Shown piece after piece: positions 3,397 to 21,800 of a DNA stretch of 44,749 nt. Positions within the stretch are counted from its first letter, which is position 1. Every line of letters starts with the position of its first letter. A program made the position numbers and the translations under genes. The DNA lies in assembly GCA_009781425.1 (NCBI GenBank), contig WQYC01000020.1, forward strand, positions 1 through 44,749. The letters are read 5' to 3'. The notes under the pieces are model-generated. The model saw nothing but the letters and a program-made list of their open reading frames with translations. It searched no databases and was not told the DNA's origin. Source of the DNA: Oscillospiraceae bacterium. GTDB lineage: Bacteria; Bacillota; Clostridia; Oscillospirales; Ruminococcaceae.

Positions 3397-3480
3397 TTAC
3401 GATATTCCGGCTGTGCTTGTGCTGAGGATTAGGAGGCGGGAGTGCTTGTCGGAAATGGGTGGGAAGGACTTGGGGTTCAT
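3397..3480 (-). pseudogene. 5' remnant of hypoxanthine-DNA glycosylase gene (cassette A)
   Basis: These 27 codons start MNPKSFPPISDKHSRLLIL, matching the first 19 codons of the intact glycosylase gene at 16442-16924 almost residue for residue, then diverge and stop. The remnant is divergent from the MuF-like gene exactly as in cassette B. It marks the left limit of the duplicated block. Confidence 0.8.
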
Positions 3481-3498
3481 ATTTACCTCAAAACATCA

Positions 3499-3549
3499 TT
3501 GTATTGCACGCAGTATCTTTGATATAATGTAGATAATCTATATTATATC
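3499..3549 (+). promoter_or_regulatory. Promoter and palindromic operator of cassette A
   Basis: TTGTAT, 18 bp, then an extended TGATATAAT. The -10 lies in a near-perfect 29-bp palindrome at 3521-3549 (GATATAAT, TAGAT, ATCTA, ATTATATC arms). The same palindrome stands base for base before cassette B at 16966-16994. It looks like a repressor or activator site; the regulator is unknown. Confidence 0.65.
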
Positions 3550-3560
3550 AAGGAGAAATC

Positions 3561-4274
3561 ATGAAAAATCAAAAACGACCAAAAGAATATTTTAAGGACA
3601 GTAGTAGACTTTTTGATAATAATGTGTTATTATCAAAGGGGGAGAAGGAAGGACACGGGTATTATCAGTTTCTGACTTCGGGTACAAATGTTTGTGCGAG
3701 ATGTCAGAAGTTGCACAGAAAAATATTCAGGTATTCTGAAATTACAGAGAAAGAAGCTATACCGCCGATACACCCGAATTGTAGGTGTGAGATTGTGGTG
3801 TTGGAGGGGGATATTAATGATATATGGGATTCTGTTACTATAACAAGAATCGGTACTTTACACCCGGCGATTCAAGATTCTGCCATTGCGTTTATCCTTG
3901 CGGCTCAAAAACAGGATATAAATCTACGAATAACTGACGGTTTTCGTTCAATTGAAGAGCAAAATATATTATATGAACAAGGAAGAACAACACCGGGAGC
4001 TATTGTTACAAATGGTAGAGGAGGTCAAAGTTACCATAATTTTGGTCTTGCACTTGATGTTGTGGAAATGAAAGACGGCGTTCCTTTATGGGAAGAAACT
4101 GATTGGGATAAAGTCGGAGCTTTAGGGAAACAATTTGGTTTTGAGTGGGGTGGCGATTGGGCTTCATTTGTAGACAGACCGCATTTTGAAATGAGTTTTG
4201 GTTTTTCTACATCTCAATTTCTTCAAATGTATAATGATGATAAAACTACAGACGGATTCGTAAATATACAATAG
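3561..4274 (+). CDS. MuF-like zinc-tail protein fused to VanY/M15-type peptidoglycan peptidase
   Basis: A 237-residue two-part protein. Residues 1-82 are nearly identical to the start of the gene at 17006 and contain C45-x2-C48 and HPNCRC (H71, C74, C76), the zinc-binding end of the phage Mu F / SPP1 gp7 head-morphogenesis fold. Residues about 90-225 are an M15 peptidase: SYHNFGLALD gives ligands H159 and D166, and DRPHFEM gives H208, as in L-alanyl-D-glutamate endopeptidases (CwlK, Ply500) and VanY. Such enzymes cut peptidoglycan stem peptides. There is no signal peptide and no phage structural gene nearby. A strong AAGGAG precedes the ATG. Lipoprotein genes follow at once. I read it as a possible cell-wall-targeting effector; a degraded phage module is the alternative. 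Confidence 0.8.
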   Translation: MKNQKRPKEYFKDSSRLFDNNVLLSKGEKEGHGYYQFLTSGTNVCARCQKLHRKIFRYSEITEKEAIPPIHPNCRCEIVVLEGDINDIWDSVTITRIGTLHPAIQDSAIAFILAAQKQDINLRITDGFRSIEEQNILYEQGRTTPGAIVTNGRGGQSYHNFGLALDVVEMKDGVPLWEETDWDKVGALGKQFGFEWGGDWASFVDRPHFEMSFGFSTSQFLQMYNDDKTTDGFVNIQ

Positions 4275-4293
4275 GATTTAAGGAGTTATAGGA

Positions 4294-4767
4294 ATGATAA
4301 AAAACATAAAACGTATATTTATATATTTAACTATATTATTATCATTTGTATCTTGCAACACGACACAAATCGTCGAATTCGATTCGACGACAGTTGTCAT
4401 TTACAAAGACATTTATGATTACTCGTCGGAGGGCGGTTATATTCAAGCTGTTTTATTAAATGATGACATAAAATATCTTCATGTAAAAATTTTCGGCGAA
4501 ACATATCGGAGTAATTTTAATTATTCTTTTAATGAAAACAACGTGATTATTTCTATTGTAAGAGAAAACTACACACAGCCATTTTACATTGAACCCGAAG
4601 CTGTTTTAATAAAAAGCATTGAGCGGGAAATGTATCTTTTGGAAAACGATAAGCTTTATGAAATCGTTAATGCAAGCGGCGTAATGAATGAGTTAAGCGA
4701 TGAAAAACGCAATGAAATTGTAGATTTGATGAATAGTTTTGTTGATGAAGTATTTAACGGGAGATAA
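4294..4767 (+). CDS. Predicted lipoprotein, cassette A first
   Basis: A 157-residue protein with a type II signal peptide: basic MIKNIKR, a hydrophobic stretch, and lipobox SFVSC with lipidated C21. The mature part is acidic and mainly beta-predicted by eye, with no family I recognise. AGGAG precedes the ATG, 19 bases after the hydrolase stop; the next lipoprotein gene starts three bases later, so the three are surely one transcript. It has no counterpart in cassette B. Its last codons (FNGR, stop) do match the end of the lysozyme gene in cassette B, because conserved block 2 starts there. It is a candidate immunity protein for the M15 effector (inference). Confidence 0.75.
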   Translation: MIKNIKRIFIYLTILLSFVSCNTTQIVEFDSTTVVIYKDIYDYSSEGGYIQAVLLNDDIKYLHVKIFGETYRSNFNYSFNENNVIISIVRENYTQPFYIEPEAVLIKSIEREMYLLENDKLYEIVNASGVMNELSDEKRNEIVDLMNSFVDEVFNGR

Positions 4768-4770
4768 TTT

Positions 4771-5667
4771 ATGAAATCAAAAACGCTTCTCATTATATCA
4801 ATAATACTTTTATTTATTATCGTATTTTCAGGTTGCAATGCAGATATTCCGCTTGATTCATGGCTCGGTTCATACAGCTTAACCGAATTTATTGAGGGTA
4901 TAGGCTCACCCATTATGATGAGCTATGAAATCACAATTTACGAAGAAGACGAGAAATATTTCGCAGACATAATTATAAACGGTTTTCAAACTATGTCACG
5001 AATAAAAGCCACAGTAGATGGAAATGAAGAATCAATTGATTTAATTTTCGATTCATATTTGCCGGATAATATGTTTGAAATATTTGAGAAAGGTGATTTG
5101 CTTTTATCGTTTTCGAGGAGCGGAGATGAAATTATAACTTCACGGGGGCGAATTGAATCAATTTGGGTTGATAATACAGAACAGGGAATTTATTTTAAAA
5201 AAAGTAACATAACCTACAACCAACTATTCTACGGAACATGGCGGATAGCCGAACTTATCCCGCCGGATTTATCAGTTCCCTCCGGTCGCACCGTTCTTAA
5301 TTCTGACGGCGAACTATACTGGGATTTTACTTCAATATTAAATATCGAAGTTACTTTTAAGGATAATTACATAAAATACGAAGGCGAAAAGCACGAATTA
5401 ATGCATGAATTTGAAACGTACAGTCTACCGTTATTTTTGGAAAATGATACTGTTAATGGTTATTATTATGCGAGCAGTTTAGGTATTTCGGGAAATTATT
5501 TTTCTGTAGTTTATTTTCTGCACCCCTATTATCAAAAAACGGAAAACCTTGACGAAAACAAACTTAATCAGATTTACATAAGTGATTTGTGTTATTTATA
5601 TTTGAAAGATTATAATACGATTTATGCTTCGGACAGCGTATTAATTTATCGTTTGGAGCGCATATAA
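4771..5667 (+). CDS. Predicted lipoprotein, cassette A second, shared leader
   Basis: A 298-residue lipoprotein with lipobox VFSGC (C22). The signal peptide MKSKTLLIISIILLF is shared almost exactly with the cassette B lipoprotein at 17816, at DNA level from 4753 to about 4839, but the mature parts are unrelated. The mature region begins LDSWLGSYSLTEF and has an alternating pattern reminiscent of DUF5991-type lipocalin-like proteins; a second similar unit may start at FYGTWRIAEL near residue 153. No signature of enzyme activity is visible. It would sit on the outer face of the membrane, next to peptidoglycan, fitting a protective or inhibitor role, which is inference. Confidence 0.75.
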   Translation: MKSKTLLIISIILLFIIVFSGCNADIPLDSWLGSYSLTEFIEGIGSPIMMSYEITIYEEDEKYFADIIINGFQTMSRIKATVDGNEESIDLIFDSYLPDNMFEIFEKGDLLLSFSRSGDEIITSRGRIESIWVDNTEQGIYFKKSNITYNQLFYGTWRIAELIPPDLSVPSGRTVLNSDGELYWDFTSILNIEVTFKDNYIKYEGEKHELMHEFETYSLPLFLENDTVNGYYYASSLGISGNYFSVVYFLHPYYQKTENLDENKLNQIYISDLCYLYLKDYNTIYASDSVLIYRLERI

Positions 5668-5683
5668 TTTAAAATATTTCCAT

Positions 5684-5983
5684 TTACTCCCTATAATCCA
5701 CACAGGCGCGGTCTTTCGTAACCGCACGCACAAACTCGCCGACGCGCTTATGCTCGGGGTGAACGATGTAAGCCGCCAGAGCTTCCTCGCTCTCGAAAAG
5801 GCTATCGAGCATAATATTTCTGTTGCTTGAAGGCATAGCATTAATTTGCACTTTTAATTCAACAATTCCGTCAATAAGTTCCGGTAATTCCTCTAAAAGA
5901 GCTTTCATTTTCTCTGCATTTTGCGTGTTTTCATTTGGCGTAAAACCGTCTGCGTAATTCCACATTACTACGTGTCGTATCAT
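5684..5983 (-). CDS. Dabb (stress-response A/B barrel) domain protein
   Basis: A 99-residue single-domain protein of the dimeric ferredoxin-like Dabb family. It starts MIRHVVMWNYADG, contains the usual ELPELIDGIVELKVQINAM stretch and ends with HPEHKRVGEFVRAV. Family members are small stress proteins or cyclase-like enzymes; no function can be assigned here. GAGG precedes the ATG, and a consensus promoter lies at 6013-6041. It converges on the cassette A lipoprotein gene, leaving 16 bases between stops. An in-frame deleted copy is at 18586-18753. Confidence 0.85.
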   Translation of the reverse strand: MIRHVVMWNYADGFTPNENTQNAEKMKALLEELPELIDGIVELKVQINAMPSSNRNIMLDSLFESEEALAAYIVHPEHKRVGEFVRAVTKDRACVDYRE

Positions 5984-6012
5984 TTTTGTAACCTCTGAAA
6001 ATTTGTTTCTTT

Positions 6013-6041
6013 ATGATACCACAAAAAGTTTAAAATGTCAA
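6013..6041 (-). promoter_or_regulatory. Promoter of the Dabb gene
   Basis: Minus strand TTGACA, 17 bp, TATCAT. It is conserved base for base at 18783-18811 upstream of the deleted copy. Confidence 0.75.
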
Positions 6042-6051
6042 TTAGAACAAG

Positions 6052-6077
6052 AAAACCGCCGTGATTACGGCGGTTTT
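6052..6077. terminator. Bidirectional hairpin terminator, conserved in both cassettes
   Basis: Stem of 11 bp (AAAACCGCCGT with ACGGCGGTTTT) around a 4-base loop. The copy at 18823-18847 has a compensating T-A to C-G change at the loop end of the stem, so pairing is kept. It separates the dockerin relic from the Dabb gene. Confidence 0.75.
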
Positions 6078-6087
6078 GATGCTTCAA

Positions 6088-6213
6088 TTAAATCTTGTCA
6101 ATTAAGCTTGCGATTAATCTGAGGATTTGTAACGCGTCTGCGCCATGTTTATAAATGCTCATCCACTTTGCAAAATATTCATGGAAATACTACGTTGTTT
6201 TGTTTGCGGTCAT
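6088..6213 (-). pseudogene. Relic of a dockerin protein gene
   Basis: Reading leftward there is a start with a ribosome site (AGGAGAG before MTANKTT, then TAG), and in another frame the end of a dockerin repeat, GADALQILRLIASLIDKI and stop. This matches the end GTNNALNILRLVAGIIEKI of the giant protein at 18858-23231, and the first codons resemble its MQTKTT start. I infer a paralogue reduced to its two ends by a large internal deletion. Confidence 0.6.
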
Positions 6214-6502
6214 TTATGTAACTCTCCTGTAATAATTATTAGCGGCAAAGCCACAAATCAATTATACAAGAGGTTTTGCATTTGGCTATACAAACATCTT
6301 TTGTAAATACGCTGTTTTTAACAGCTTTACTTAAAACAATCGGCGAGCAGTTGACGTTCGATAACTGCGAATAGTGATAAAACCTGCATATTATTTGAAT
6401 TATCGGTACATTTCTGCTTGACAAGTTATAGATTTTATGCTATAATTAGAGTATAAGAAACGTGCCGAATTTTACTTAAACATTTTGAAAGGAAGTGTTT
6501 AA
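6214..6502. other. Non-coding junction region with integrase promoter
   Basis: No credible gene is seen between the dockerin relic and the integrase pseudogene. It holds a consensus promoter at 6418-6446 and an AAAGGA ribosome site at about 6488. It probably contains the left end of the old mobile element. Confidence 0.5.
6418..6446 (+). promoter_or_regulatory. Promoter of the broken integrase gene
   Basis: TTGACA, 17 bp, TATAAT, followed by an AAAGGA and the ATG at 6503. Confidence 0.75.
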
Positions 6503-7060
6503 ATGGCAAATATAACTAAGCGCGGCAACGCATATTTAATAACTGTTTCGTGTGGGTAGGCAGTAGACGGAAAACAAGTCAAGCAGTTTGCAAGCGAATA
6601 CTTGAAAGACGTTGCACCGTCTAACCTTAAAGCGAATACACTTGCGAATTATCATAATTACAGCAAGAGGACGTTTGCGGCTATCGGTCATTTACGGTTA
6701 GACAAAGTAACACCTCGACACATTCAACAGTTTATTAAAGACTTAGAAACTGGCGAACGATTTGACAAGTACCGCAAGGGGGCTTTATCCGCAAAGACTA
6801 TCAAAAACCATATAGCATTTATTTCTTCGGTTTTTGAATATGCTCGGAAAATGCAAGTGCTTTCATTCAATCCGTGCGGCTCTGTTATTCTTCCGAAAGA
6901 CAGAGCAGAAGAACAGCAACAAGAAATTTACACAGTAGAGGAAACGCAGAACATTTTAGCTTTATTGTGTCAAGAGGAAAAGAAAAATTTTCACTACGTC
7001 ATTTATTTTCTTCTCGCTGTCTACACAGGATTCCGCAGGGGGGACGCTTATGTCAAGCAC
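6503..7060 (+). pseudogene. Truncated tyrosine integrase
   Basis: The reading frame begins MANITKRGNAYLITVSCG, the usual N-terminal arm of ICE-type integrases, then meets TAG at 6557. After the stop it continues in frame as the SAM-like core-binding domain (NLKANTLANYHNYSKRTFAA, IGHLRLDKVTPRHIQQFI), but part of the arm-binding domain is missing. The catalytic domain ends abruptly just after the first arginine (TGFRRG, about 7040), where unrelated sequence begins. The HxxR and tyrosine boxes are absent, so it is inactive. The break point is next to the serine recombinase element, which probably inserted or recombined here. Confidence 0.85.
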
Positions 7061-7094
7061 AAACTAAAAAATTTTTCAAATTATTTTATAAATC

Positions 7095-7138
7095 GAAAAA
7101 AAGCGCAGCACCCATCGTTGTTTAAGGGTACTGCGCTT
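7095..7138 (-). terminator. Terminator of the serine recombinase gene
   Basis: Stem AAGCGCAG with CTGCGCTT, followed on the minus strand by a run of seven T. It lies 17 bases after the recombinase stop codon. Confidence 0.7.
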
Positions 7139-7154
7139 CATATATATTTCGTAA

Positions 7155-9188
7155 TTAAACAGCTTCCGTTTTTGTAAAATTCTCAAACTTCCAGTGAATC
7201 TCAATATGGTTATTCGGGAAGACGAGAACTTTTTCAATAAGAGCATCCACAATATCTTTCGGTTCAGCCGTTTCGCTTAGTGCGTTTTTTGCGAGAACAG
7301 CAGTTTTGTTATCCGCTTCTTTTTTGCGAGCCGATTGTTGGAAAACGGCAAGTTGCTGAGTCAACTGCTCAATCTGCTTCGTGTAGTCGTCTTTGAGCGA
7401 ATGAAAAGTATCACGGTCAATTTCAAGGCATATAAATTTTTCATAGCACTCCTGTCGCTGTTTAGAAAGCAAACTGATTTGCTTTTTTATTTCAACACTA
7501 TTGAGCTGAACAACAGAGCCATCAAGCTGACTGTTATTTACCGCAGTCTTACGGAAACCCGATAAATCAACGCAGTTCAAAACAACCTCGGCTTGTTTTT
7601 TGATTATATCCATAACAGCATTTTCGAGTTCATCGGAACGACACTTCATTTTATAGCACTTCGCCGCAGGGTTTGCGTGTGTATGAGCGCACCTGTATAC
7701 AGGCGGATTGGTCGCATCGCCGTATGAAAGTGCATAACCGCGACAGCCGCAGACGACTTTCCCGTACAACAAATAATCGCGTTTTTTCGTATTTTTACGG
7801 CTTTGTGAGCGGATTTTCTGTACTTCTTCAAAAACATCTTTAGATATAATCGGAAGGTGTTTATCGGCGATTATTATCCACTCGCTGCGAGGTCGAAGAT
7901 AAAATTTACCGTTCTCGTCTTGAAACGATTTCCCGCCAACGTATGAGCCGATATATTGCTCATCTTTCAAAATATCCTTTAACGCCTGCGTTTTCCAGTG
8001 ACAAGTCGGAATAATATTTGCTCCTTTGGTAAGTTTTCGTTCTTCGTTTAATGTAGGAATACCAAGCTCACGCAGCTTGTTACAAATATCTCTAAGCGAT
8101 GAGCCGTTTAATGTCATGTTGAAAATCATACAAATCACTTCTGCTGTTTTAGAATTTATTTCCCAAATACCGTTATTTACAGTGTAGCCGTATGGAACAG
8201 CGCAAGATTTTCTTTCACCGTTTACTATGCGTTCTCTCAATTTGTTCGCATGATTACTCGGAACAGGCTTTTCGGCAATAAATGCTTTCGGATTTGCCAA
8301 AATTTCTTGCACTCTCTCGAATTCTTCTTTGCTCACAATTGACGGGTGGCTGTCGGGAATTATAATCCACTCCGAGCGTGGTTTTTCAATCATAGCTATT
8401 GAGCCGACACGGGAGGTTTCTCGCTTTCCCGCTACATAAGAACCGGTGTATTGTTCGTTAGTTAATATTCGGTAGATTTGCCGTGTAGTCCAGTTAAACT
8501 CCGGTATGATGTCCTTACCTTTTTTATGATAATCGTATTCCATCGGTGCAAGGCGGCGGTCAGCGAACAACTTATTACGGATTTGCGCCGTAGTCTTGCC
8601 GTTAAGTGCCATGTCATAAATCTCGCGGACAACCTCGGCGGCGAGTGGGTCGTGTTCCCATCTGCCTTTGTCGTTTTTGCGATAACCGTAAATCGCACCG
8701 CCGACAATGTGTTCGCCGTTTTGCATAAGCACACGCTTCGCGCTTTTAATCTTCTTTGATAAATCTGCGCTGTAATATTCGTTCATCATAAACTTGAACG
8801 CAATGTCAATACCGCCTGTGCCGTCTTTGTAATCATTAGAATCGAAGCGGTCGCTCACGGCGATAAACCGCACACGGTATAGCGGGAACACCTTTTCAAT
8901 GTAATAACCGCTTTCTAATGCGTTTCGGGCGAATCTTGAAAAGTCTTTTACTATAATGCAGTTTATTCTACCGCACCGCACAAGCTCAATCATTTCTTGA
9001 AAAGCAGGGCGTTCGACGTTTGTTCCCGTGAAGCCATTATCTATGAACTCTAAAATCTGCGCCCCCGGCATATTCATATCTTCGATGTGACAATCAAGAA
9101 GAAGCCGCTGATGAGGTATACTCAGACTCTCGGAAACCGTGTCGTCTTGGGAAAGACGAATATACTTCGCTATTACACACTCATTCAT
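7155..9188 (-). CDS. Large serine recombinase with a duplicated recombinase domain
   Basis: A 677-residue site-specific recombinase of the TnpX/TndX type. The N-terminal catalytic domain (1-150) has the nucleophile serine in AKYIRLSQDD and the motif IIVKDFSRFARN. Two consecutive recombinase (PF07508-type) units follow, at about 165-290 and 320-450, each with a YGY start, a W(T/K)TxxIxxIL-like helix, a YxGSYVxGK segment and PRSEWIII. A zinc ribbon follows (CGCRGY, then RCAHTH and KCYKMKCRS), then a coiled-coil end. It mobilises circular DNA by serine-linked strand exchange. The ATG overlaps the stop of an upstream truncated recombinase gene by eight bases, so the two were coupled. Single-unit relatives are usually shorter. 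Confidence 0.92.
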   Translation of the reverse strand: MNECVIAKYIRLSQDDTVSESLSIPHQRLLLDCHIEDMNMPGAQILEFIDNGFTGTNVERPAFQEMIELVRCGRINCIIVKDFSRFARNALESGYYIEKVFPLYRVRFIAVSDRFDSNDYKDGTGGIDIAFKFMMNEYYSADLSKKIKSAKRVLMQNGEHIVGGAIYGYRKNDKGRWEHDPLAAEVVREIYDMALNGKTTAQIRNKLFADRRLAPMEYDYHKKGKDIIPEFNWTTRQIYRILTNEQYTGSYVAGKRETSRVGSIAMIEKPRSEWIIIPDSHPSIVSKEEFERVQEILANPKAFIAEKPVPSNHANKLRERIVNGERKSCAVPYGYTVNNGIWEINSKTAEVICMIFNMTLNGSSLRDICNKLRELGIPTLNEERKLTKGANIIPTCHWKTQALKDILKDEQYIGSYVGGKSFQDENGKFYLRPRSEWIIIADKHLPIISKDVFEEVQKIRSQSRKNTKKRDYLLYGKVVCGCRGYALSYGDATNPPVYRCAHTHANPAAKCYKMKCRSDELENAVMDIIKKQAEVVLNCVDLSGFRKTAVNNSQLDGSVVQLNSVEIKKQISLLSKQRQECYEKFICLEIDRDTFHSLKDDYTKQIEQLTQQLAVFQQSARKKEADNKTAVLAKNALSETAEPKDIVDALIEKVLVFPNNHIEIHWKFENFTKTEAV

Positions 9189-9377
9189 TTTCTGTAACCT
9201 CCTCCTTGTTATAAACCGGTTCGTCTAAGAAACTAAACTTGACTTCTATGCGTTTGTCGGGATAAACCGTGATTCCGTCTACTAATCTGTCAACAATCTC
9301 TGCCGTTAAGTCGGAAATCTGCTCTAACTTTTGTACATTCGCATGAGCCTGTGATAATTCCGATAGCGAATGATTCT
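9181..9377 (-). pseudogene. C-terminal remnant of a second serine recombinase
   Basis: Only about 64 codons remain: a coiled-coil segment (SLSELSQAHANVQKLEQI) followed by DRLVDGITVYPDKRIEVKFS and a short acidic tail. That is the typical last part of large serine recombinases, and it matches the end of the gene at 7155 in style (VDALIEKVLVFPNNHIEIHW). A TAG lies in frame just upstream at the break. The full-length gene would have been the first of a tandem recombinase pair. Confidence 0.75.
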
Positions 9378-9481
9378 ACGTCGATTGCTCCGGGAGCAGG
9401 GAAAGCGGGAGCGTTCGGGTAGAAAATCCGCACGGCATCTTCCGAGATTATATAATGCGGTGTAAGCTATAAGGAGTAATA

Positions 9482-9627
9482 ATGGACTATTAAATACAAC
9501 GGCTTGATAATGAAAAGTGGCAAGGTCATGAGTTTTTTTCAGCGACTATGCCGACAATATTATACACATTAACGGAAATTCAAAGTGGCAAAGCGTAATC
9601 CGCTTGAACGGTGTACGTTTCGACTGA
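9482..9627 (+). pseudogene. Possible GNAT acetyltransferase relic
   Basis: After AAGGAG an ATG opens MDY, stop, then IQRLDNEKWQGHEFF and, after a frame change, HINGNSKWQSVIRLNG and stop. The start resembles the opening of small Clostridial GNAT proteins, but the frame is broken at least twice. The family call is weak. Confidence 0.25.
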
Positions 9628-9633
9628 TAAAAT

Positions 9634-9670
9634 AACCACCGCCTTGATTGATGTAATCAAGGCGGTGGTT
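9634..9670. repeat. Hairpin with 16-bp arms
   Basis: AACCACCGCCTTGATT pairs perfectly with AATCAAGGCGGTGGTT around a 5-base loop. No clear T run follows on the plus strand; ATTTTAT follows on the minus strand. It may be a terminator or an element end. Confidence 0.5.
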
Positions 9671-9910: not shown

Positions 9911-9911
9911 T

Positions 9912-11312: not shown

Positions 11313-11313
11313 T

Positions 11314-12111: not shown

Positions 12112-12134
12112 AGGCATACCTCATATATTATTGA

Positions 12135-13718: not shown

Positions 13719-13811
13719 AAATTTTGAGGTCGGACATCAAACGGACATCAAAACCGAAAAAACCGCATAATAAAAAGCCGCAAAACCGCTCTATGAGCGA
13801 CTTCACGGCTA

Positions 13812-13853
13812 TCTGAGTGACAGGATTTGAACCTGCGGCCTCTACCACCCCAA
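13812..13853. repeat. Left attachment site, tRNA-Pro 3' duplicate
   Basis: A 42-bp perfect copy of the 3' part of tRNA-Pro(GGG), from the anticodon loop to the discriminator base; the other copy is 29108-29149 in the same orientation. A terminator-like hairpin follows the tRNA direction at about 13775-13810. I read it as the island end away from the intact tRNA. Confidence 0.85.
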
Positions 13854-14063
13854 CGGCTTCCGGGCGTTTTGGCGGATTTTGTTAAACGTCGTTTAACATA
13901 GGTATAATGCGGTTTTTCAAGATTTCGGTTTTGGCGCGTTTGGGTCAAATTTGCCCTGTTTTGACCCGTTTGTTGGACAAATATTGGACTGGGATTTAGT
14001 TAGTTATAATAACTAATTTCTTTTTATTTCACTAAAACATTTATTTCACTAAAACATTTAATG
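13854..14063. other. Island left-end non-coding region
   Basis: It holds GTTAAAC/GTTTAAC arms at about 13881, the arm-like TTGTTGGAC at about 13970, a TAGTTAT/ATAACTA inverted repeat near 14001, and a tandem 17-bp repeat (TTATTTCACTAAAACAT twice, 14024-14057). No gene is seen. Confidence 0.5.
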
Positions 14064-14927
14064 TCAATCATTATCATCCCCTTCAATCATCGAAATTTTC
14101 TGTTGCCCAAGGCTCTTTGCGTTCAGTTGGCTGACAGCGGGTTTTCCGGTGCGTAGTTCGAGTTGTTCACGGGCGATTTTTGCCGTTTCTGCACCCTCAC
14201 GAGCAACCTCTGCACTTTCAGCGAATCCGACAGGCTGACGAGCAATAGATATATCGGTAGCGGCGACTTCCGCAAGCATATTAAGTACAAGCTCAGTATT
14301 TGTCATATTATCACGCAGATTTTCTTTCTTCAAGCCCTTGTACTTGCGATATTCACGGGTAGTCATGCCGCTCCAAGTCCTGCTCATCAAATCGGTGAGA
14401 GCGGCATACTCAATGCCCTCTTGAACTCCGCTTTCGTCCCATTCATCGGTCAATGCTTTGCGAACCTCAATTGATTTAATCCGCTGATTTATCCAGTTTT
14501 CGCTATAACCTAAACGGCGGTAATTCTGTATAGCACGGTCGATTGACAATTCGGGGTCAACGGTTTCATCAATGCGTTCGCTCCCGACTTTGGCGAGCCA
14601 CAGCTTAAACGGCTCGGCTTTTTTGCTCGGAACTGACTGAATAAGCCGTAAAACCTGCTCTGTGTCCATGACGTCTGTTTTATAATTTTTGCCATCGGCA
14701 GCAGGCAATTTCAGTTGACTACAATTTGTAGCCAACTCGCTTCCTTCCTTTTTCAATCGCGTTTTTAGCACGCTCCAATACTTACGCGCACCGTCATGCG
14801 TGGGTTGTTCAGTTAATATTTCTACTATATCCAAAACAGAAAGCCAATATTTTTCGTTTTCCTCGTCCCAAATATACCGGACTTGCTTATCCTCGAATAA
14901 TTTAATTTTGTTTTTGGGTTCACTCAT
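14064..14927 (-). CDS. Bro-N domain protein (phage antirepressor-like)
   Basis: A 287-residue protein. The Bro-N domain (about 8-120) reads KLFEDKQVRYIWDEENEKYW, then WLSVLDIVEILTEQ and DTEQVLRLIQSVPSKKAEPF. The central part is the conserved YSENWINQRIKSIEVRK and SGMTTREYRKYKGLKKENL followed by MTNTELVLNMLAE. These features define a family common on integrative elements, related to viral Bro and phage antirepressors; DNA binding is likely but its target is unknown. AAGGAT precedes the ATG. It follows the AlbA-type ATPase gene by 19 bases on the same strand, probably in one operon. Confidence 0.88.
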   Translation of the reverse strand: MSEPKNKIKLFEDKQVRYIWDEENEKYWLSVLDIVEILTEQPTHDGARKYWSVLKTRLKKEGSELATNCSQLKLPAADGKNYKTDVMDTEQVLRLIQSVPSKKAEPFKLWLAKVGSERIDETVDPELSIDRAIQNYRRLGYSENWINQRIKSIEVRKALTDEWDESGVQEGIEYAALTDLMSRTWSGMTTREYRKYKGLKKENLRDNMTNTELVLNMLAEVAATDISIARQPVGFAESAEVAREGAETAKIAREQLELRTGKPAVSQLNAKSLGQQKISMIEGDDND

Positions 14928-14946
14928 GGCAACTATCCTTCGTTTA

Positions 14947-16401
14947 TTATTGTTTCGTTAAATATTTTTGATTTCTGCTCGTTGGTTTATCAGGAATAGT
15001 CATAGTTATTTTTCCGCTTTCAAGAAGTGGGGTAATATAAGTTTTTACAACGTGGTTTTTATCTTTCAACTTTAAAAGTTCTTGAATTTCTGTTCTGCTT
15101 CGCGGAATAGAGCAGAATTTTATAATTTTATCTTGTGGGGTATCTTGTGGGGTATCTTGTGGGGTGGTTTTTTCAATTTCAATTTGCAACTTTAAAACAA
15201 CTCTGTCGGGATTAAACTGTTCGACTAAAACAGGACGGTTCAATCCGTTTTCTTCCCATACTGAGTGAATCCCATATAAGCCGCTTCCTGCACGTTCACC
15301 GATTAAAATAAGAGCGAACATCTTCATTAGTGTTTGATTCCGTGTGTCAGAAACGCCACCGCTCACGGCTTCGTCAACACTAATTCGCATTGAACCGGGA
15401 TTCGATATTGTAATTTCTTTGAATGATTTCTCAATTACAAGCCCCCGACGTTCATAGTAATTAGAGTGAATGAGAGCATTCGCAACAGCTTCCCTTATAG
15501 CTTCGTGCATAGGGGTATCGTCAATACGGTCTAAACCATTTTTCAATTTGAACGGTGTTTTTACATCGCCTGTAACTCTTGCATAAATCTTGAAATAGAA
15601 GTCATATAAATTTCCGCTCCACTCGCCTAAATTGGAAACGACTCTATCGCTCCAACGAGTGGTTTCGTCGAGCTTTTCGCGATAATCCAAGAAGTAATTA
15701 GGAAACTCCCTAACGATTTCATATTCATAGCCAAACATTAAAATTCCTGCAGCAGTAGGGTGGACTTTTCCGGTTTCCTTGTCTTTTGCTAATGCGCCGA
15801 TTTTCAATAAGAGCTCATCAACGGGAATATCATTCCAAACGTGCTTTGGCTTTAAGTTTGAGAATCTCGTTTTATATCGCATGACCGTATCGTTATCAAA
15901 AGAACTAATGTCATGTTTTTTCAACATTAATAAATCGTGCGAGTTATCATCGCTATCGCTAATCATGTTTGTTACTTCAGATTTAGTACAATGATAATCA
16001 CCTTCACCATTTCTGCGGAATGAGCCTGTAAGTGGATTTTCGCCAATATAAACAGGCTTGAACTGACGTTCCGCTCTCGGAACATCGATTTTTATAATTC
16101 TTTTGCCCTTAGAAACTTCAATAATCTGCACGTTATGGTCGCTCAAAGTATTTACGCTGACAACTTTTTTGTTGTTGATATTATTCCAAAAATCCTGCAA
16201 CATTTTCTCGGCATTTTTGACACCCGACATACTGAAAGTTTTATCGCTGTTTTCGGTAACACCAAGCAAAATAACACCGCCGAGCGAATTCGCAAACGCG
16301 GAATACGTCGCCCATATACTTTTAGGCAAGGTGGTTTCTGCTTTTTTCGCTTCGATGCGGTTATTTTCTTTGTAATTTGATAAATCTTTTATCGAAAACA
16401 T
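14947..16401 (-). CDS. AlbA_2 (Schlafen-like) DNA-binding domain and HATPase_c_4 protein
   Basis: A 484-residue protein. Residues 1-150 are the AlbA_2/Schlafen DNA-binding domain (ENNRIEAKKAE, then SAFANSLGGVILLGV). The middle holds a HATPase_c_4 region with REAVANALIHSNYYERRG and ISNPGSM as nucleotide-binding motifs. A winged helix ends the protein. Before it are three TPQD units made by 12-bp tandem repeats. The family is often annotated as an ATP-dependent helicase-like or transcriptional regulator, without a proven role. The start at 16401 has GAGGAG eight bases before; the ATG at 16422 has none. It leads into the Bro-N gene. Confidence 0.88.
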   Translation of the reverse strand: MFSIKDLSNYKENNRIEAKKAETTLPKSIWATYSAFANSLGGVILLGVTENSDKTFSMSGVKNAEKMLQDFWNNINNKKVVSVNTLSDHNVQIIEVSKGKRIIKIDVPRAERQFKPVYIGENPLTGSFRRNGEGDYHCTKSEVTNMISDSDDNSHDLLMLKKHDISSFDNDTVMRYKTRFSNLKPKHVWNDIPVDELLLKIGALAKDKETGKVHPTAAGILMFGYEYEIVREFPNYFLDYREKLDETTRWSDRVVSNLGEWSGNLYDFYFKIYARVTGDVKTPFKLKNGLDRIDDTPMHEAIREAVANALIHSNYYERRGLVIEKSFKEITISNPGSMRISVDEAVSGGVSDTRNQTLMKMFALILIGERAGSGLYGIHSVWEENGLNRPVLVEQFNPDRVVLKLQIEIEKTTPQDTPQDTPQDKIIKFCSIPRSRTEIQELLKLKDKNHVVKTYITPLLESGKITMTIPDKPTSRNQKYLTKQ

Positions 16402-16441
16402 AGATTTTACTCCTCGCTTCAATATGTTATGTCATAGTATA

Positions 16442-16924
16442 TCACAATTCTAAGATAAAATCAAGTTCCGCTTTCCATGCCGCTGTCAATCTTTGCAAGC
16501 TCCACACGGCATTCGCCGGACTGGTGGAAGGCATACACACGACAGGTAGCGATAAACCCAATTTCTGACATAGTTTATACGCTTTCGCGCCGTTACACAA
16601 AACTTTCTCAATCTGCATTTTGCTTATAAATCCGGCGATGTTATTATAAACCGGCTCGCGAATTGTCGAATCATCGGAGCCTGTAATTTTGCACGATTCT
16701 AAAACGTCCCATAAAGCGATTTTATTCGCCAAAAGTAGCTGCGTTTTATCCTTTACAGTCTGCGGGAGCGGCTTTCCAAGACACGCCGCAAGCACCCGCC
16801 AGAAACGGTTTTGCGGGTGCGAATAATAAAAGCCCGCCTCGCGCGACTTAACGCTCGGCATTGTGCCGAGGATTAGGAGGAGGGAGTGCTTGTCTGAAAT
16901 GGGCAGGAAGGATTTGGGGTTCAT
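16442..16924 (-). CDS. Hypoxanthine-DNA glycosylase (UDG superfamily, family 6)
   Basis: A 160-residue DNA repair enzyme expected to remove deaminated adenine. LGTMPSVKSREAGFYYSHPQ followed by NRFW is motif 1 of the UDG superfamily as found in family 6, and MPSTSPANA is motif 2. The start at MNPKSFLP (16924) is chosen because GAGG lies just upstream; a longer frame to 16954 lacks a site. It is divergent from the MuF-lysozyme gene with 81 bases between. Its first codons are duplicated as a remnant in cassette A (3397-3480), so this gene flanked the cassette before duplication. Confidence 0.87.
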   Translation of the reverse strand: MNPKSFLPISDKHSLLLILGTMPSVKSREAGFYYSHPQNRFWRVLAACLGKPLPQTVKDKTQLLLANKIALWDVLESCKITGSDDSTIREPVYNNIAGFISKMQIEKVLCNGAKAYKLCQKLGLSLPVVCMPSTSPANAVWSLQRLTAAWKAELDFILEL

Positions 16925-16943
16925 GTTTACCTCGAAAACTTCA

Positions 16944-16994
16944 TTGTATTGCACACAGTATCTTTGATATAATGTAGATAATCTATATTATATC
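16944..16994 (+). promoter_or_regulatory. Promoter and palindromic operator of cassette B
   Basis: TTGTAT, 18 bp, TGATATAAT, with the 29-bp palindrome at 16966-16994 identical to that of cassette A. It would drive the MuF-lysozyme and lipoprotein genes. Confidence 0.65.
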
Positions 16995-17005
16995 AAGGAG
17001 AAATC

Positions 17006-17812
17006 ATGAAAAATCAAAAACAATCAAAAGAATATTTTAAAGACAGCAGTAGACTTTTTGATAATAATGTGTTATTATCAAAAGGGGAGAAGGAAGGGAA
17101 TAGGTATTATCAGTTTCTGACTGAGGGTACAAATGTTTGTGCGAGATGCTCGGCATTAGACGGCAAGAAGATTAAAATTTCTGATGCTAAAGCAGGAGAG
17201 AATCTGCCGCCACTACATCCGAATTGTAGGTGTGAGGTTGTGGTGTTGGAGGCGTCGGAAGGAGCTTATGCAGACCCGAATAACGCATATGGTTTATCGG
17301 AATCACAAAAAATATCAAATGCCGAATATATACATCGGGTTCTAAAAGAACAAGGCTGGTCTACACAAGCTATAGCCGCATTATTAGGTAACATAGAAAA
17401 AGAAAGTGGCTTCAATCCTGCCGCTTATGAAGTTCCCGGAAATAAAAATCGAGGATACGGATTAATTCAATGGACACCCGCTACACCTTTTCTTTCTCAT
17501 TTCGGAATAAACGAAGTTGAAGCAGACGAAATGGCACTAAATAGTCCAAGTATTCTTATTGATATGCAGTTAGAATTTTTGACACTAACTTCAACTACAT
17601 CTTGTTATGACACAAGACAGTGGTATCCCACTATGAGGTTTTTCTCGCCATACGAAATGAGTTTTAACAGTTTTATTACCTCGACTAACTGCCCGAGAGA
17701 GTTGGCTTCTGTTTTCCACTCGCATTACGAACGGTCTGCCGATTCTGAAGACGGAATTAGAGGAAGAGCAGATAGTGCAGAAAAATGGTTTAATTACTTT
17801 AACGGGAGATAA
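17006..17812 (+). CDS. MuF-like zinc-tail protein fused to phage-tail-lysozyme domain
   Basis: A 268-residue two-part protein. Residues 1-82 match the cassette A protein nearly residue for residue, with C45-x2-C48, a better preserved ALDGK segment, and HPNCRC (H71, C74, C76). From about residue 104 it carries a phage tail lysozyme domain: YIHRVLKEQGWSTQAIAALL, then GNIEKESGFNP with the likely catalytic glutamate E133, and GYGLIQWTPA. This cuts glycan strands, whereas the cassette A protein cuts peptides. There is no signal peptide. The stop is followed after three bases by the lipoprotein gene. I infer an effector with a swapped toxin domain; a leftover phage lysin is less likely because no phage genes accompany it. 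Confidence 0.82.
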   Translation: MKNQKQSKEYFKDSSRLFDNNVLLSKGEKEGNRYYQFLTEGTNVCARCSALDGKKIKISDAKAGENLPPLHPNCRCEVVVLEASEGAYADPNNAYGLSESQKISNAEYIHRVLKEQGWSTQAIAALLGNIEKESGFNPAAYEVPGNKNRGYGLIQWTPATPFLSHFGINEVEADEMALNSPSILIDMQLEFLTLTSTTSCYDTRQWYPTMRFFSPYEMSFNSFITSTNCPRELASVFHSHYERSADSEDGIRGRADSAEKWFNYFNGR

Positions 17813-17815
17813 TTT

Positions 17816-18610
17816 ATGAAATCAAAAACGCTTTTTATTATATCAATAATACTTTTATTTATTATCATATTCTCGGGTTGCAATAACGATAATTCATTTA
17901 ATGACAACTCGGATACTATTGATTACACCGAATATTTAAACAAAATATGGATTATTAACGATTGGGATTATGAAAGCTATCGTTATTCTCTGTCATTTTT
18001 TATCAATAGTATAGAAGCCGGTAATATTAGAGGTGAGCTTTCGGTAGGTGGGATAACGGCTATGCCTGCGTTCTATTTTTATTCGTTTAATTCTGTAAAA
18101 TTCTGTGATTTTGAAGGAGTCATTATTGACGGAACAGCTGAATGTGAGTTTGACGACGGCGAAGGGAACAAAGGAATTATTTCCTTGAATTTCGGAAATA
18201 ACCAAATAGAAGCCGAAATTAAATTTACGAGCAAAAAATTCCCTGACTTAAATAATACTGCTGACGGTATTTATATTTTTGAACCTTATAATTTAGAGCA
18301 TTTAAGTAGTTCCATGATTAACACATTTGCGCTCACTGTTGATTTAAACTCATGGAGAATCGTCAATCTTGTAACAACTGTAATTGATGGGAATAAACCT
18401 TATCCAACAGCGTTTTTGACCAATGAATACGGCGATATTTTATATCAATTCGGAGCATATCAGGTCGGCTCGAAAATCACAGATGTATTTATAGAAGATA
18501 TAAATGAAGACGGCTTGAAAGACGTGAAAATTATTACTGATTTCGGCATTGAATTTTTATTTTTACAAATGGAGAACGGCTTGTTTTACCGCAGTGCGCT
18601 TGAATTATAA
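17816..18610 (+). CDS. Predicted lipoprotein, cassette B, shared leader
   Basis: A 264-residue lipoprotein with lipobox IFSGC (C22). Its signal peptide and 87 bp of DNA around the start (17798-17884) match the cassette A lipoprotein, but the mature part is unrelated. The C-terminal half contains DVFIEDINEDGLKDVKIITD, an FG-GAP/VCBS-like calcium-loop segment. The mature N-terminal part is beta-rich with no family I can name. It directly follows the lysozyme gene on one transcript, as expected of a paired immunity protein guarding the outer envelope (inference). Its 3' end overlaps the deleted Dabb gene on the other strand by 25 bases. Confidence 0.75.
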   Translation: MKSKTLFIISIILLFIIIFSGCNNDNSFNDNSDTIDYTEYLNKIWIINDWDYESYRYSLSFFINSIEAGNIRGELSVGGITAMPAFYFYSFNSVKFCDFEGVIIDGTAECEFDDGEGNKGIISLNFGNNQIEAEIKFTSKKFPDLNNTADGIYIFEPYNLEHLSSSMINTFALTVDLNSWRIVNLVTTVIDGNKPYPTAFLTNEYGDILYQFGAYQVGSKITDVFIEDINEDGLKDVKIITDFGIEFLFLQMENGLFYRSALEL

Positions 18611-18753
18611 TCCACACAAGCGCGGTCTTTCGTAACCGCACGCACAAACTCGCCGACGCGCTTATGCTCGGGGTGAATGATGTAAGCCACCAGAGCATCC
18701 TCGCTCTCGAAAAGGCCGTCTGCATAATTCCACATTACTATGTGTCGTATCAT
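18586..18753 (-). pseudogene. Dabb gene with in-frame internal deletion
   Basis: It opens MIRHIVMWNYADG, then jumps directly to LFESEDALVAYIIHPEHKRV and ends NSSALR. Compared with 5684-5983 about 48 residues are missing and the frame is kept, giving a 55-residue product that lacks most of the barrel. Promoter and ribosome site are intact. The final codons run into the lipoprotein gene on the other strand. Confidence 0.75.
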
Positions 18754-18782
18754 TTTTGTAACCTCTGAAAATTTGTTTCTTT

Positions 18783-18811
18783 ATGATACCACAAAAAGTT
18801 TAAAATGTCAA
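18783..18811 (-). promoter_or_regulatory. Promoter of the deleted Dabb gene
   Basis: TTGACA, 17 bp, TATCAT on the minus strand, identical to 6013-6041. Confidence 0.75.
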
Positions 18812-18822
18812 TCAGAACAAGA

Positions 18823-18847
18823 AAACCGCCGCAATTGCGGCGGTTTT
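18823..18847. terminator. Terminator between dockerin gene and Dabb copy
   Basis: AACCGCCGC / GCGGCGGTT stem around AATT with flanking A and T runs. It lies just past the stop codon of the giant dockerin gene and is the counterpart of 6052-6077 with a compensatory base pair. Confidence 0.75.
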
Positions 18848-18857
18848 GATGCTTCAA

Positions 18858-21800
18858 TTAAATCTTCTCAATAATCCCTGCGACAAGGCGCAATATATTC
18901 AACGCGTTATTCGTTCCTATATCACCTTTGCCGCCGTTCGCGACAAACTGCTGAATTGAATTAAGCTCGCTGATTCCTGCGATGTGCCGCAGTAGCGCCA
19001 GCGCGTCGCTCGTTTCTACCTCGCCCGTGCCTGTAATGTCGCCTGTTTTAAAGGTTAATACTAAATAATCGCCCGCTGCAGCTACGTTTATGTTCGCGTT
19101 GCCGTTCGTGCCGACTGTGGAAGCCGAAACAAACTCAAGCTCGCCTGTTTCTGCGTTGAATTTCACAAGTACAGCGTTTTGTCCTGCGAAATCCGCGCCG
19201 ACGCTGACGCTTACGTTTCCTGCAGTTGTGACCTTAAGCTGATTCACGGGGATATTATCGTTTATTGCATTAATTACGTCTTTCGGGATATTAACTATAA
19301 TCGTTGTTGTTCCGCTAACCTGCTGTACAGGCGGGGTTGCGGGCGTTTCATCGCTCGGCGTACCACCGCCACCACCACCACCGGACGGCTTTTTCGTGTT
19401 TCCTGTCGGGCAGGGGTTCTCACAATTCCCCTCGCCCTTGCAGTTAGTTCCGCAAGGCGTAAATGTTTTAGGGTCGCAGTCATCGCAGATTCCGCAGTCA
19501 CAAGGCGGTTTAGGACATTCACAGGGCTCTTCCCCGCAGTCCTCGCAGACAGGGTCGTCGGGGTCATCAATGACGCAAAGCTCACATTCACACTCATACC
19601 ATGCGCCGAGCATGGGAGTGATTCCGTCAAAATAATCGTTAAACTTCTCGTCCCACTGACGATAGCGGGAGAGCGAGTGCTCAAAGCTCCATGTTGTATG
19701 CGCGCTCGTCACCTGCACAGCCCGCCACAAGCCGCCTGTGCCCTCTGTTGTATCGCTCGTTTTCGCGATTACATCATCGGCTAAAGCCGCCACCGCCGTC
19801 GCGTAAACTAAGTTATTATAAACATCATAAGGGTTGCTGTAGTTATCGCCGACGTCACAGTCATCATGGACATCATGGCATAAGCACCGCAAGCAGTCAC
19901 CGCATTGATTATAATCAAAATAGACGCCGCAGGTCATGCAAAAATCACATTCATCGCAATAACCTAAATCGTTTTCATAGCAATCGCCGCAAGCACCGCC
20001 AATCATATCCTCGCCGCAGTTATCTATTTTGCATTTACCGTCTTCGTCACCGTAGCAGTCACTGCATACTTGGCAATAACCGCATAATGATAAACCCGCT
20101 CCAAAGAAACAATACAAGCACCACCAAAGCTCACAGCACCTAAATAACGCAACCTCGCCCGGGTTTTCGCTGCCGCAGCTATTGCAGCCGTTAAATACTT
20201 CGCCGAAAGCCTTTTCTTCGCCGATATAGAGGTTATTCACCGCCGAGTCGAAGTATACCTGCCCCGCGATGCCGCCGATAAATTCCTCATAAACGGCGGA
20301 AATCTTAATATCAAGCTCTGCCATAGACAGCGTATTTAACACGCAGGCTAAGCTTGCGGGCTCGACCGCCGAGGTATAACCCACGATACCGCCGACAAAC
20401 AGAGAGGCTGCGGCGAACGAAGCGCAATCACCACATTTTCCGTCATTTCTGTCATAGCAGAAGCCGCAGTCCGGGCATATCGTGTAGTTATAGTAGTTAT
20501 GACAGTCTTCGCAGCCGATGCAGTCTTCCATGTTCCACCAGCATAACAGGGTATCAGTTTCATCGCAATTCCGGCAGTCGCCGATAAGCAGCTCACAATA
20601 ACCACAACCATCGCCTATTTCATTGCAGTTGCCGCAGTCCAAGCATATCGTGAAGCCTTCAGAGTTATGACAGTCTACGCAGTCTTGGCAGTCTTTGCAT
20701 AAAAGGGTGTAGGGTTCATCGCAATACCAGCAGTCGCCGTAGAGTAAGCTGTCGTTTATTCCTGCGGAGATTAACGTCCCGTAAATGGCGGTGCTGGCGA
20801 TATTGCTGTCGTAGCTTGCGCCTGCCGCGCCGCCCATGTAAAGCATGGAGCTTATTTCGATTTCAGGAGCAAACATCGTCACAAACGCGACCTCGCCGCC
20901 GTAAACGTCTACGCCGTTCATTATGCTCATGTATAAGCCGACGCTGTTTTTGTATTCGCCTTTATGGAGATAACCCGCAACGCCGCCGATAAACGCGGAG
21001 CTATTCCTGTAAAATTCTTCAACGTCAAGCATTACTGTAGGGTTGATAATTTCCACGTCGCGGATTTGCGCTCCTACGCCGAGCCCCGTCACCGCGCCTA
21101 AAGCCGTGGCTTTGTCAGTTCCGTTCTCAACCTTATCGCTGATGATTACGGGGTTGTCTAAGACTAAATTCCTCACTGTGCTGTATTCCAATACCGCGAA
21201 AAGCCCCGCCGCGTGGTATAAATTGCCGTAGTCGCTGTCGTAGCTCTGTTGCTCTATCATGCCGCCGCCGCTGTTTAATATATATTGACCCGTGCCTGTT
21301 ACGTTCAGCCCCGAAATCGTATAACCCTGCCCGTCGAAGACTGCGTTGGTCAAGATAGCGGGCTCGGTGATTGCTTTGCCTGTGAGGTCAAGGTCAGCCT
21401 CTAAGTAAATCGTAGTACAGCACCAAGCCGTGTTGTCTTCAAGCAATTCTTCGTAAAAATACCGAAAATCTTCTTCGTTTTCAATGAAAAGCTCTTTTAC
21501 TTCGTCGGTGCCGCAGTTGCAGGGGTAGAATTCGCTGCCGTCGCACATATCGCAGCCCACGCCGCTACATTCACAGTCGTCCACACACACATCGCAGCCC
21601 TCGCCGTTACAGTTGTCGCAGACGCCGACGTCACAGCAGTCAACACAACCGCAAGTGCAATTGGGGTTGGGCTCGGAGCAACATTCGCCGATACCGCCGC
21701 AACCGCCGCCTGTATCGCCGTAGCCCTCAGGGAGCTCGACGTCTAAGATATACCAGAAATCCCCGTTGAAAGTATAATCAATTTCAAGCCAACCACCGTC

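What the first reader, a model, noticed from the sequence alone, without database searches (positions are those of the whole stretch)
3397..18870. Two chimeric cassettes with conserved blocks around swapped hydrolase and lipoprotein cores
Cassette A (3397-6213) and cassette B (16857-18870) share three blocks. Block 1 is 3421-3808 versus 16865-17252, the same 388-bp length without indels, carrying the glycosylase 5' end, promoter, operator and MuF-like N-terminus. Block 2 is 4753-4839 versus 17798-17884, 87 bp each, carrying the lipoprotein signal peptide. Block 3 runs from 5692 and from 18606: Dabb gene, promoter, terminator and dockerin end. Between the blocks the sequences are unrelated: M15 peptidase versus tail lysozyme, and different mature lipoproteins. 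This is the layout of polymorphic toxin-immunity loci diversified by recombination at shared flanks. I know of no described system pairing a MuF-like tail, a cell-wall hydrolase and a lipoprotein in this way.
Basis: partly seen in the sequence, partly recalled or inferred. Interest (0 to 1): 0.88.

Follow-up and report, generated by a model that had tools for sequence, protein, structure and literature searches.

The report
Swappable wall-cutting toxins with lipoprotein antidotes
A bacterium carries small gene cassettes that look like interchangeable cell-wall-cutting toxins, each next to a surface lipoprotein that probably protects the owner, a cell-wall-targeting version of a toxin family so far described from phages.

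Summary
The two cassettes and their shared blocks are real, with small corrections: block 1 has a 1-bp indel, and cassette A holds two lipoprotein genes, block 2 lying on the second. (1) The same genome holds two further loci with this MuF C-terminal tail and another wall hydrolase (M23; CHAP-like, below cut-off), each followed by a lipoprotein. Four related genomes have more (one broken), one with tandem headless toxin/partner cassettes. (2) Hydrolase type and partner co-vary: comparing 11 toxin ends and 13 mature partners gives the same four strong pairs. Searching 393 genomes with B's lipoprotein alone found one foreign homologue, directly downstream of a MuF-tail plus tail-lysozyme protein. 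Among 123 distinct MuF-tail loci scored, a lipoprotein follows 7 of 8 with hydrolase ends but 1 of 115 others (few genomes, so not independent). Two partners in another genome match the family of XAC2610, a proven lipoprotein inhibitor of a wall hydrolase; the window's own do not. Best reading: polymorphic antibacterial toxins that cut peptidoglycan, with extracytoplasmic immunity proteins; a variant of the MuF polymorphic toxins that here lies outside any recognised prophage. Delivery, toxicity and neutralisation are inferred, not shown.

The parts
3418..3479 (-). 5' remnant (about 20 codons) of a uracil-DNA-glycosylase gene at the left edge of cassette A
   Evidence: translation beside the intact copy
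3421..3808 (.). Block 1 of cassette A: glycosylase 5' end, promoter, operator, MuF tail
3499..3528 (+). Sigma-70-like promoter, TTGTAT-18 bp-TATAAT (read by eye)
   Evidence: sequence
3519..3551 (.). 33-bp near-palindromic putative operator overlapping the -10 box (15 of 16 pairs)
3561..4274 (+). Toxin A, 237 aa: MuF C-terminal tail + M15 (Ply500-like L-Ala-D-Glu) peptidase; SxHxxGxAxD and WGGDW..D.PHFE present; no signal peptide seen by eye
4294..4767 (+). Lipoprotein A1, 157 aa, probable immunity protein for toxin A
   Evidence: lipobox by own rule, +19 bp from toxin stop; no family hit
4753..4839 (+). Block 2 of cassette A: Shine-Dalgarno site + lipoprotein signal peptide
   Evidence: 82 of 87 identical
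4771..5667 (+). Lipoprotein A2, 298 aa, DUF5991 domain; second, possibly non-cognate immunity protein
5684..5983 (-). Dabb (stress-responsive A/B barrel) gene, intact copy
5692..6137 (.). Block 3 of cassette A: Dabb, inverted-repeat terminator (by eye), dockerin-like 3' end
16442..16954 (-). Intact uracil-DNA-glycosylase gene beside cassette B
16865..17253 (.). Block 1 of cassette B
16964..16996 (.). 33-bp near-palindromic putative operator, identical to A
17006..17812 (+). Toxin B, 268 aa: MuF C-terminal tail + Phage_lysozyme2 domain (phi29 gp13-like); LGNIEKES motif present
17798..17884 (+). Block 2 of cassette B
17816..18610 (+). Lipoprotein B, 264 aa, probable immunity protein; homologue in G582 also follows a MuF-tail lysozyme
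18606..18907 (.). Block 3 of cassette B: Dabb remnant with in-frame 48-codon deletion, terminator, dockerin-like 3' end
13809..29149 (.). Putative integrative element holding cassette B: 45-bp repeats (44/45) at tRNA-Pro, integrase 27690-28961, repressor-like gene 27103-27693

Best explanation
Each cassette is a polymorphic antibacterial toxin-immunity module. A short MuF-type tail (the last third of the phage minor-head domain) is the constant N-terminal half. The C-terminal half is an exchangeable peptidoglycan hydrolase (M15 in A, phi29-type lysozyme in B, M23 and CHAP-like at two other loci of the genome). The next gene encodes a lipoprotein that is exported, sits on the outer face of the membrane where the hydrolase would act, and blocks it. 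Transcription starts from a promoter overlapped by a palindromic operator. The toxin has no visible export signal, so it is probably held in the cytoplasm and released by lysis or by phage-derived particles (not shown). New specificities arise by recombination in the constant pieces: promoter/operator/MuF tail (block 1) and Shine-Dalgarno/signal peptide (block 2). Shown from sequence: architecture, catalytic motifs, adjacency, co-variation, mosaicism. Inferred: toxicity, inhibition by the lipoprotein, delivery.
For: Four of four MuF-tail loci found in this genome have a hydrolase or hydrolase-like end and a following lipoprotein. MuF-tail proteins in general often carry toxin domains (126 distinct ends: ADP-ribosyltransferase 9, barnase-type RNase 8, TNT 2, Ntox50 2, CdiA_C 2 and others; wall hydrolases M23 2, Phage_lysozyme2 2, M15 1, CHAP 1, GH108 1, phage lysozyme 1); a barnase example has barstar downstream. 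Lipoprotein next door in 7 of 8 hydrolase loci versus 1 of 115 others, Fisher 9e-10; the one other has a weak phospholipase A2-like hit, below cut-off. Same four strong pairs from toxin ends and from mature partners. Blind hit: B's lipoprotein searched in 393 genomes matched one other genome, next to a MuF-tail + Phage_lysozyme2 protein whose end is 37% identical to B's. XAC2610 family over cut-off in two G060 partners (37.5 and 55.9 bits, cut-off 35); XAC2610 is a lipoprotein that inhibits a GH19 wall hydrolase (PMC10933484, passages). Headless tandem cassettes in G060. MuF tail of locus C21 is 94% identical to B in the same genome but 65% to its own orthologue in G026, whereas its hydrolase end matches G026 and not B.
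Against: No experiment. Delivery route unknown: no WXG100 match in the genome, no SPP1-type portal; no MuF gene was detected in its contractile prophage. Hydrolase-type loci come from few genomes (the seven from three), so the Fisher value overstates independence; two of the four pairs are tandem copies in one genome. Weak extra matches do not agree with each other (toxin B-C72_1, 37 aa; partner C72_1-G060_2, 16 aa). G006: broken lysozyme remnant beside a lipoprotein unlike B's. Some partners have no lipobox: G060 third partner and G582 show a hydrophobic N-terminus without the cysteine. L113 (Alphaproteobacteria, GH108 end) has no same-strand lipoprotein; exported-looking genes lie convergent. 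Locus C21 has lost promoter and ATG and is probably silent, unless a GTG serves. C14's CHAP hit is below cut-off. A's two lipoproteins have no homologous partner in the set, so A's cognate is untested. A PHROG family of phage minor head proteins (phrog_1067) aligns with B's lysozyme part (E 1.9e-6), so a lysozyme region in a phage head protein is not new.
Confidence: 0.77

Rival explanations
1. Phage infection gear: the MuF-tail hydrolase is a virion lysin that opens the wall during DNA entry, and the lipoprotein is a superinfection-exclusion factor; the chromosomal copies are stranded remnants.
For: In G006 the remnant lies just downstream of an SPP1-type portal gene and near a contractile sheath-initiator gene; G060's array is on a contig with capsid-like and baseplate/tail-like genes (by eye). 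Toxin B's lysozyme is phi29 gp13-like and matches a region of a PROHG minor head protein family, phrog_1067. [quoted passage not shown]
Against: No phage structural gene was recognised around A, B, C21 or C14 (ORF lists read; 10 window proteins by PHROGs); A and B keep intact frames, promoter and ribosome sites. Tandem headless cassettes and several swapped hydrolases fit conflict modules better than an entry tool. Of 242 phage records that match toxin B none covers 80% of it; two of them whose match spans the junction, read here, hold only the lysozyme or only the MuF part.
Confidence: 0.14
2. One-off segmental duplication with ordinary wall-maintenance or sporulation hydrolases; lipoproteins are bystanders and the MuF tail is incidental.
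For: A and B share flanking-gene fragments as a duplication would; locus C21 lies between SpoIIP and a SleB-like wall hydrolase (Pfam Hydrolase_2).
Against: No signal peptide seen on the hydrolases; same tail-hydrolase-partner order at unrelated sites and in other genomes; partner types track hydrolase types.
Confidence: 0.07

Closest known systems
MuF polymorphic toxins (Jamet et al. 2017, PMC5576092; characterised members Apk2 and Bxa, PMC11699363)
   Same: MuF-type N-terminal part, exchangeable C-terminal toxin domain, immunity gene just downstream
   Different: Only the last ~40 of 112 Pfam MuF positions in A and B; end acts on peptidoglycan; partner is exported; A and B not in a recognised prophage, whereas the 2017 abstract calls MuF toxins exclusively (pro)phage-encoded
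X-T4SS effector XAC2609 / lipoprotein immunity XAC2610 (PMC10933484, passages)
   Same: Wall hydrolase without signal peptide paired with lipoprotein inhibitor; two G060 partners match the XAC2610 family, and the full-length G060 toxin has a PG-binding domain and a weakly GH19-like end
   Different: XAC2609 carries a T4SS secretion signal (XVIPCD); here an N-terminal MuF tail; window partners A1, A2 and B do not match the XAC2610 family
TelC / TipC of Streptococcus intermedius (PMC6193138, passages)
   Same: Antibacterial toxin acting in the inner wall zone with a membrane-anchored outward immunity protein
   Different: TelC is a lipid II phosphatase exported by T7SS; no WXG100 match in this genome
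phi29 gp13 (PDB 3csr) and Ply500 (PDB 2vo9; names recalled, entries)
   Same: Best solved relatives of the B and A toxin ends
   Different: Phage tail and lysis enzymes; no MuF tail or partner gene known to me (recalled)

Membership tests
MuF polymorphic toxins (Jamet 2017) | MuF domain PF04233 over its cut-off | tested here: met
   A 32.8, B 38.1 bits, cut-off 29.6; C21 37.2; G582 35.0; C14 28.2, just under
MuF polymorphic toxins (Jamet 2017) | Full-length MuF domain | tested here: not met
   A and B match positions 73-111 and 71-111 of 112 only; C14 spans 7-110, under cut-off
MuF polymorphic toxins (Jamet 2017) | C-terminal toxin domain and immunity ORF downstream | tested here: inconclusive
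   Hydrolase end and adjacent lipoprotein present; toxicity and immunity not assayed
MuF polymorphic toxins (Jamet 2017) | Encoded within a temperate phage or prophage | tested here: not met
   A, B, C21, C14: no phage structural neighbour recognised, no SPP1 portal in the genome; phage context for G006 (Pfam) and G060 (by eye). Not every window ORF was scanned
XAC2610-type lipoprotein inhibitors | NCBIfam NF047539 over cut-off 35 | tested here: not met
   Window partners A1, A2, B: no hit (B again). G060 partners 1 and 2 met (37.5, 55.9); C72 partner 25.1, under
XAC2610-type lipoprotein inhibitors | Inhibits the neighbouring peptidoglycan hydrolase | not testable with these tools
   needs an enzyme assay
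Polymorphic toxin loci with orphan cassettes | Headless toxin ends with own immunity gene in tandem behind a full-length toxin | tested here: met
   G060: full-length toxin then three headless cassettes sharing linker sequence. Not seen in the window itself
T7SS effectors | WXG100-type component in the genome | tested here: not met
   PF06013, 0 matches in own genome; 2 of 14 control genomes rang

The most novel reading that the evidence does not exclude
The bare MuF tail is a portable address tag that works outside its own phage: chromosomal cassettes make tagged wall-cutting toxins that are loaded into heads of unrelated resident phages or phage-like particles, so that a lysogen arms its particles from a swappable, separately inherited toxin-immunity stock.
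Probability: 0.15. Interest if true: 0.88.

Novelty: new variant of a known kind. Interest (0 to 1): 0.64.

Why it matters
It would extend MuF toxins, in the papers seen here mostly enzymes acting in the cytoplasm and bound to phages, to the cell wall and to chromosomal loci, and would give several unnamed lipoprotein families a probable role as inhibitors of peptidoglycan hydrolases. Each toxin/partner pair is a directly testable enzyme and specific inhibitor, and the bare MuF tail poses a clean question: what reads it.

Tried and rejected
Simple duplication: disfavoured because partners track hydrolase types across genomes.

Type VII delivery: no WXG100 match.

DUF5991 as a marker of the system: of 394 genomes 3 matched, own included; in the two foreign loci no hydrolase was recognised by eye within the fetched flank, though a DUF5991 remnant sits near the G582 toxin. 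Not diagnostic.

B's lipoprotein as an XAC2610 relative: only a 19-residue DxNxDG motif aligns, probability 9%; not claimed.

Structures: the G060 partner-2 model has mean pLDDT 47.9 and the lipoprotein-B model 40.5; both unusable, so no fold search was run.

Viral contigs: for toxin B 15 loci were listed, matched within residues 23-94 only, not the lysozyme part, and not examined further; G060 toxin: no pattern match; lipoprotein B: no relative. Plasmids: 4 records match toxin B, none covers 80%.

Phage fusion check: records MT837434.1 and MZ832314.1, whose matches span the MuF/lysozyme junction, were opened; the first holds a lysozyme without MuF motif, the second a head protein without lysozyme (by eye). 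Other records were not opened.

Sampling notes: the 126 ends are from 250 loci; 91 with ends under 70 aa and 33 near-duplicates were dropped, among them G006, whose frame is broken; 3 more were too close to a locus end. Lipobox calls come from my own regular expression with a hydrophobicity rule, not a trained predictor. L037 (G060 toxin 1) was counted as hydrolase on kinship and a weak GH19-type profile hit (4ok7, E 0.006), not on Pfam. G582 was found later and is in neither count.
Full report
Observation. The repeats are present at the stated places. Block 1 carries one 1-bp indel and an internal allele difference of about 55 bp; with gaps it is 87% identical. It holds a 33-bp near-palindrome identical in A and B and not found elsewhere in the 2.55-Mb genome at up to 3 mismatches. 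Block 2 (82 of 87) is the Shine-Dalgarno site plus lipoprotein signal peptide: the NGR-stop codons that end the gene before it supply GGGAG. In B that preceding gene is the hydrolase; in A it is a first lipoprotein, so A has two lipoprotein genes. Block 3 includes Dabb, which in B has lost 48 codons in frame, and A keeps about 20 codons of the glycosylase.

What the genes are. Toxin A: MuF tail plus M15 peptidase, best solved relative an L-alanyl-D-glutamate peptidase (2vo9, E 1.4e-29). Toxin B: MuF tail plus Phage_lysozyme2, best solved relative Morphogenesis protein 1 (3csr, phi29 gp13 by recall, E 1.9e-20). Catalytic motifs (recalled) are present. No signal peptide is visible at either N-terminus (by eye).

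Same genome. A MuF-tail search gave four loci: A, B, C21 and C14. C21 has an M23 end and a 156-aa lipoprotein between SpoIIP and a SleB-like hydrolase; its 5' end, promoter and ATG are replaced by other sequence, so it is probably silent unless an internal GTG serves. C14 has a 447-aa protein with a CHAP-like end (22.7 bits, cut-off 26) and a 350-aa lipoprotein.

Other genomes. Genus scan: MuF-tail matches in 25 of 71 genomes. Hydrolase ends with a partner were seen in G000, G026 and, broken, in G006 (motif screen of L027-L244; Pfam of the 126 distinct ends; reading of loci); ends under 70 aa were not scanned. The other loci read mostly look like phage-type MuF proteins. G026 (record WRCY01000012.1) carries the C21 orthologue. 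G060 (record WRLU01, another family of the order) has two MuF-tail toxins and, behind one, three headless cassettes, one with the same weakly GH19-like end and two with a phage-lysozyme end, each with a following partner gene; they share linker sequence while ends differ. The G006 remnant lies beside portal and sheath-initiator genes (Pfam); G060's contig has capsid-like and baseplate/tail-like genes by eye. That these records are termite-gut genomes is recalled from their bin names, not from a call. Two records titled Alphaproteobacteria join a short MuF tail to GH108 or phage lysozyme (L113, L119); L113 has exported-looking genes convergent to it.

Is the partner tied to the hydrolase? Of 123 scored distinct MuF-tail ends a lipoprotein starts within -60 to +150 bp of the stop in 7 of 8 with hydrolase ends and 1 of 115 others, Fisher 9e-10. 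The exception, L123, has a weak phospholipase A2-like hit (19.3 bits, cut-off 23.9). Non-independence: the seven come from three genomes. All-against-all at E 0.01: toxin ends pair as B-G582, C21-G026, G060_1-2, G060_3-4, plus a weak B-C72_1 (37 aa); mature partners pair as the same four plus a weak C72_1-G060_2 (16 aa). The weak extras disagree. The B-G582 pair was found blind, by searching 393 genomes with the lipoprotein alone: 2 matched, own and G582, and the gene before the G582 hit is MuF tail + Phage_lysozyme2. Against: G006's lipoprotein does not resemble B's.

What the partner is. Two G060 partners pass the XAC2610_fam cut-off, a third MuF locus's partner is under it. XAC2610 is a lipoprotein that inhibits the GH19 hydrolase XAC2609 (PMC10933484, passages; named cognate immunity protein in PMC7286519, passages). 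The window's own partners do not match that family; A2 matches DUF5991; the similarity of B's partner to the XAC2610-type ones is limited to a short motif.

Recombination. C21's MuF tail is 94% identical to B's in the same genome but 65% to its orthologue in G026, while its end is 55% identical to G026's and gives no match to B's. This fits exchange in the constant part. A and B share flanking-gene fragments as well, so duplication of a longer segment, or import of a related allele, followed by core replacement is likely.

Context. B lies within a putative 15.3-kb integrative element bounded by 45-bp repeats at tRNA-Pro with an integrase. The genome has a contractile prophage on contig C2 (Baseplate_J by Pfam, other genes by eye) but no SPP1 portal and no WXG100 match. 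MuF-tail barnase proteins in other Clostridia-type records also sit among non-phage-looking genes in the three loci whose neighbours I read (L104, L122, L129, by eye), so non-prophage MuF-tail toxins are not unique to this genome.

Phage-side evidence. Toxin B matches 242 phage records, none over 80% of its length; two junction-spanning matches that I opened are not fusions. But PHROG family phrog_1067, minor head proteins, aligns with B's lysozyme part (E 1.9e-6), so lysozyme regions in phage head proteins exist.

Comparison with print. The 2017 MuF paper's abstract says MuF toxins are exclusively within temperate phages and prophages; the word search of its main text gave 0 for peptidoglycan, lipoprotein, hydrolase and lysozyme (PMC5576092). 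In the passages of the 2012 survey that I saw, no wall-hydrolase toxin is listed with MuF (PMC3482391, 12 of 22 places shown). The 2017 polyvalent-protein paper reports lysozyme domains in virion proteins and a zeta-like kinase fused to MuF (PMC5512222, passages). Apk2 and Bxa are characterised members (PMC11699363, passages). Searches listed no paper that by title or abstract start joins a MuF tail, a wall hydrolase and lipoprotein immunity; the listings were partial (for example 12 of 19,843) and only open-licence PMC papers are held.

Verdict. Works like a polymorphic toxin-immunity system aimed at peptidoglycan (0.77). Not filed as a strict member of the MuF toxin family, because full-length MuF and prophage location were tested and not met for A and B; it is a variant. 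Delivery, toxicity and inhibition await experiment.

Noticed in passing
window 13809-13853 and 29105-29149: 45-bp repeat (44/45) overlapping the 3' half of tRNA-Pro(ggg) 29108-29181, with tyrosine integrase and repressor-like gene beside it: a likely integrative element that contains cassette B, a glycosylase, a two-component system and a dockerin-like giant gene.
   Followed up: partly
window 6602-9188: Integrase fragment and a large serine recombinase between the cassettes, so several mobile elements seem stacked here.
   Followed up: partly
L120 4074-5369: Amidase_3 domain fused in front of a MuF-like tail (13.9 bits, below cut-off) and a barnase-like end in another Oscillospiraceae record: a wall hydrolase that may serve delivery rather than killing.
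   Followed up: partly
L113, L119, L121: Two alphaproteobacterial records and one titled only 'bacterium' share a ~95-aa MuF tail; two have different lysozyme-type ends (GH108, phage lysozyme), L121 is cut off.
   Followed up: partly
L104, L107, L122, L124, L129, L134: Short MuF-tail + barnase-like proteins; a barstar-like gene follows (Pfam-checked for L104 only).
   Followed up: partly
L123 1703-3667: MuF tail with a weak phospholipase A2-like end followed by a 376-aa lipoprotein with WD40-like repeats: perhaps another envelope-acting toxin with exported immunity.
   Followed up: no
window 38755-39046 and 38220-38632: Low-complexity E/P repeats and four 117-bp-spaced repeats within one gene (37914-39179).
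   Followed up: no
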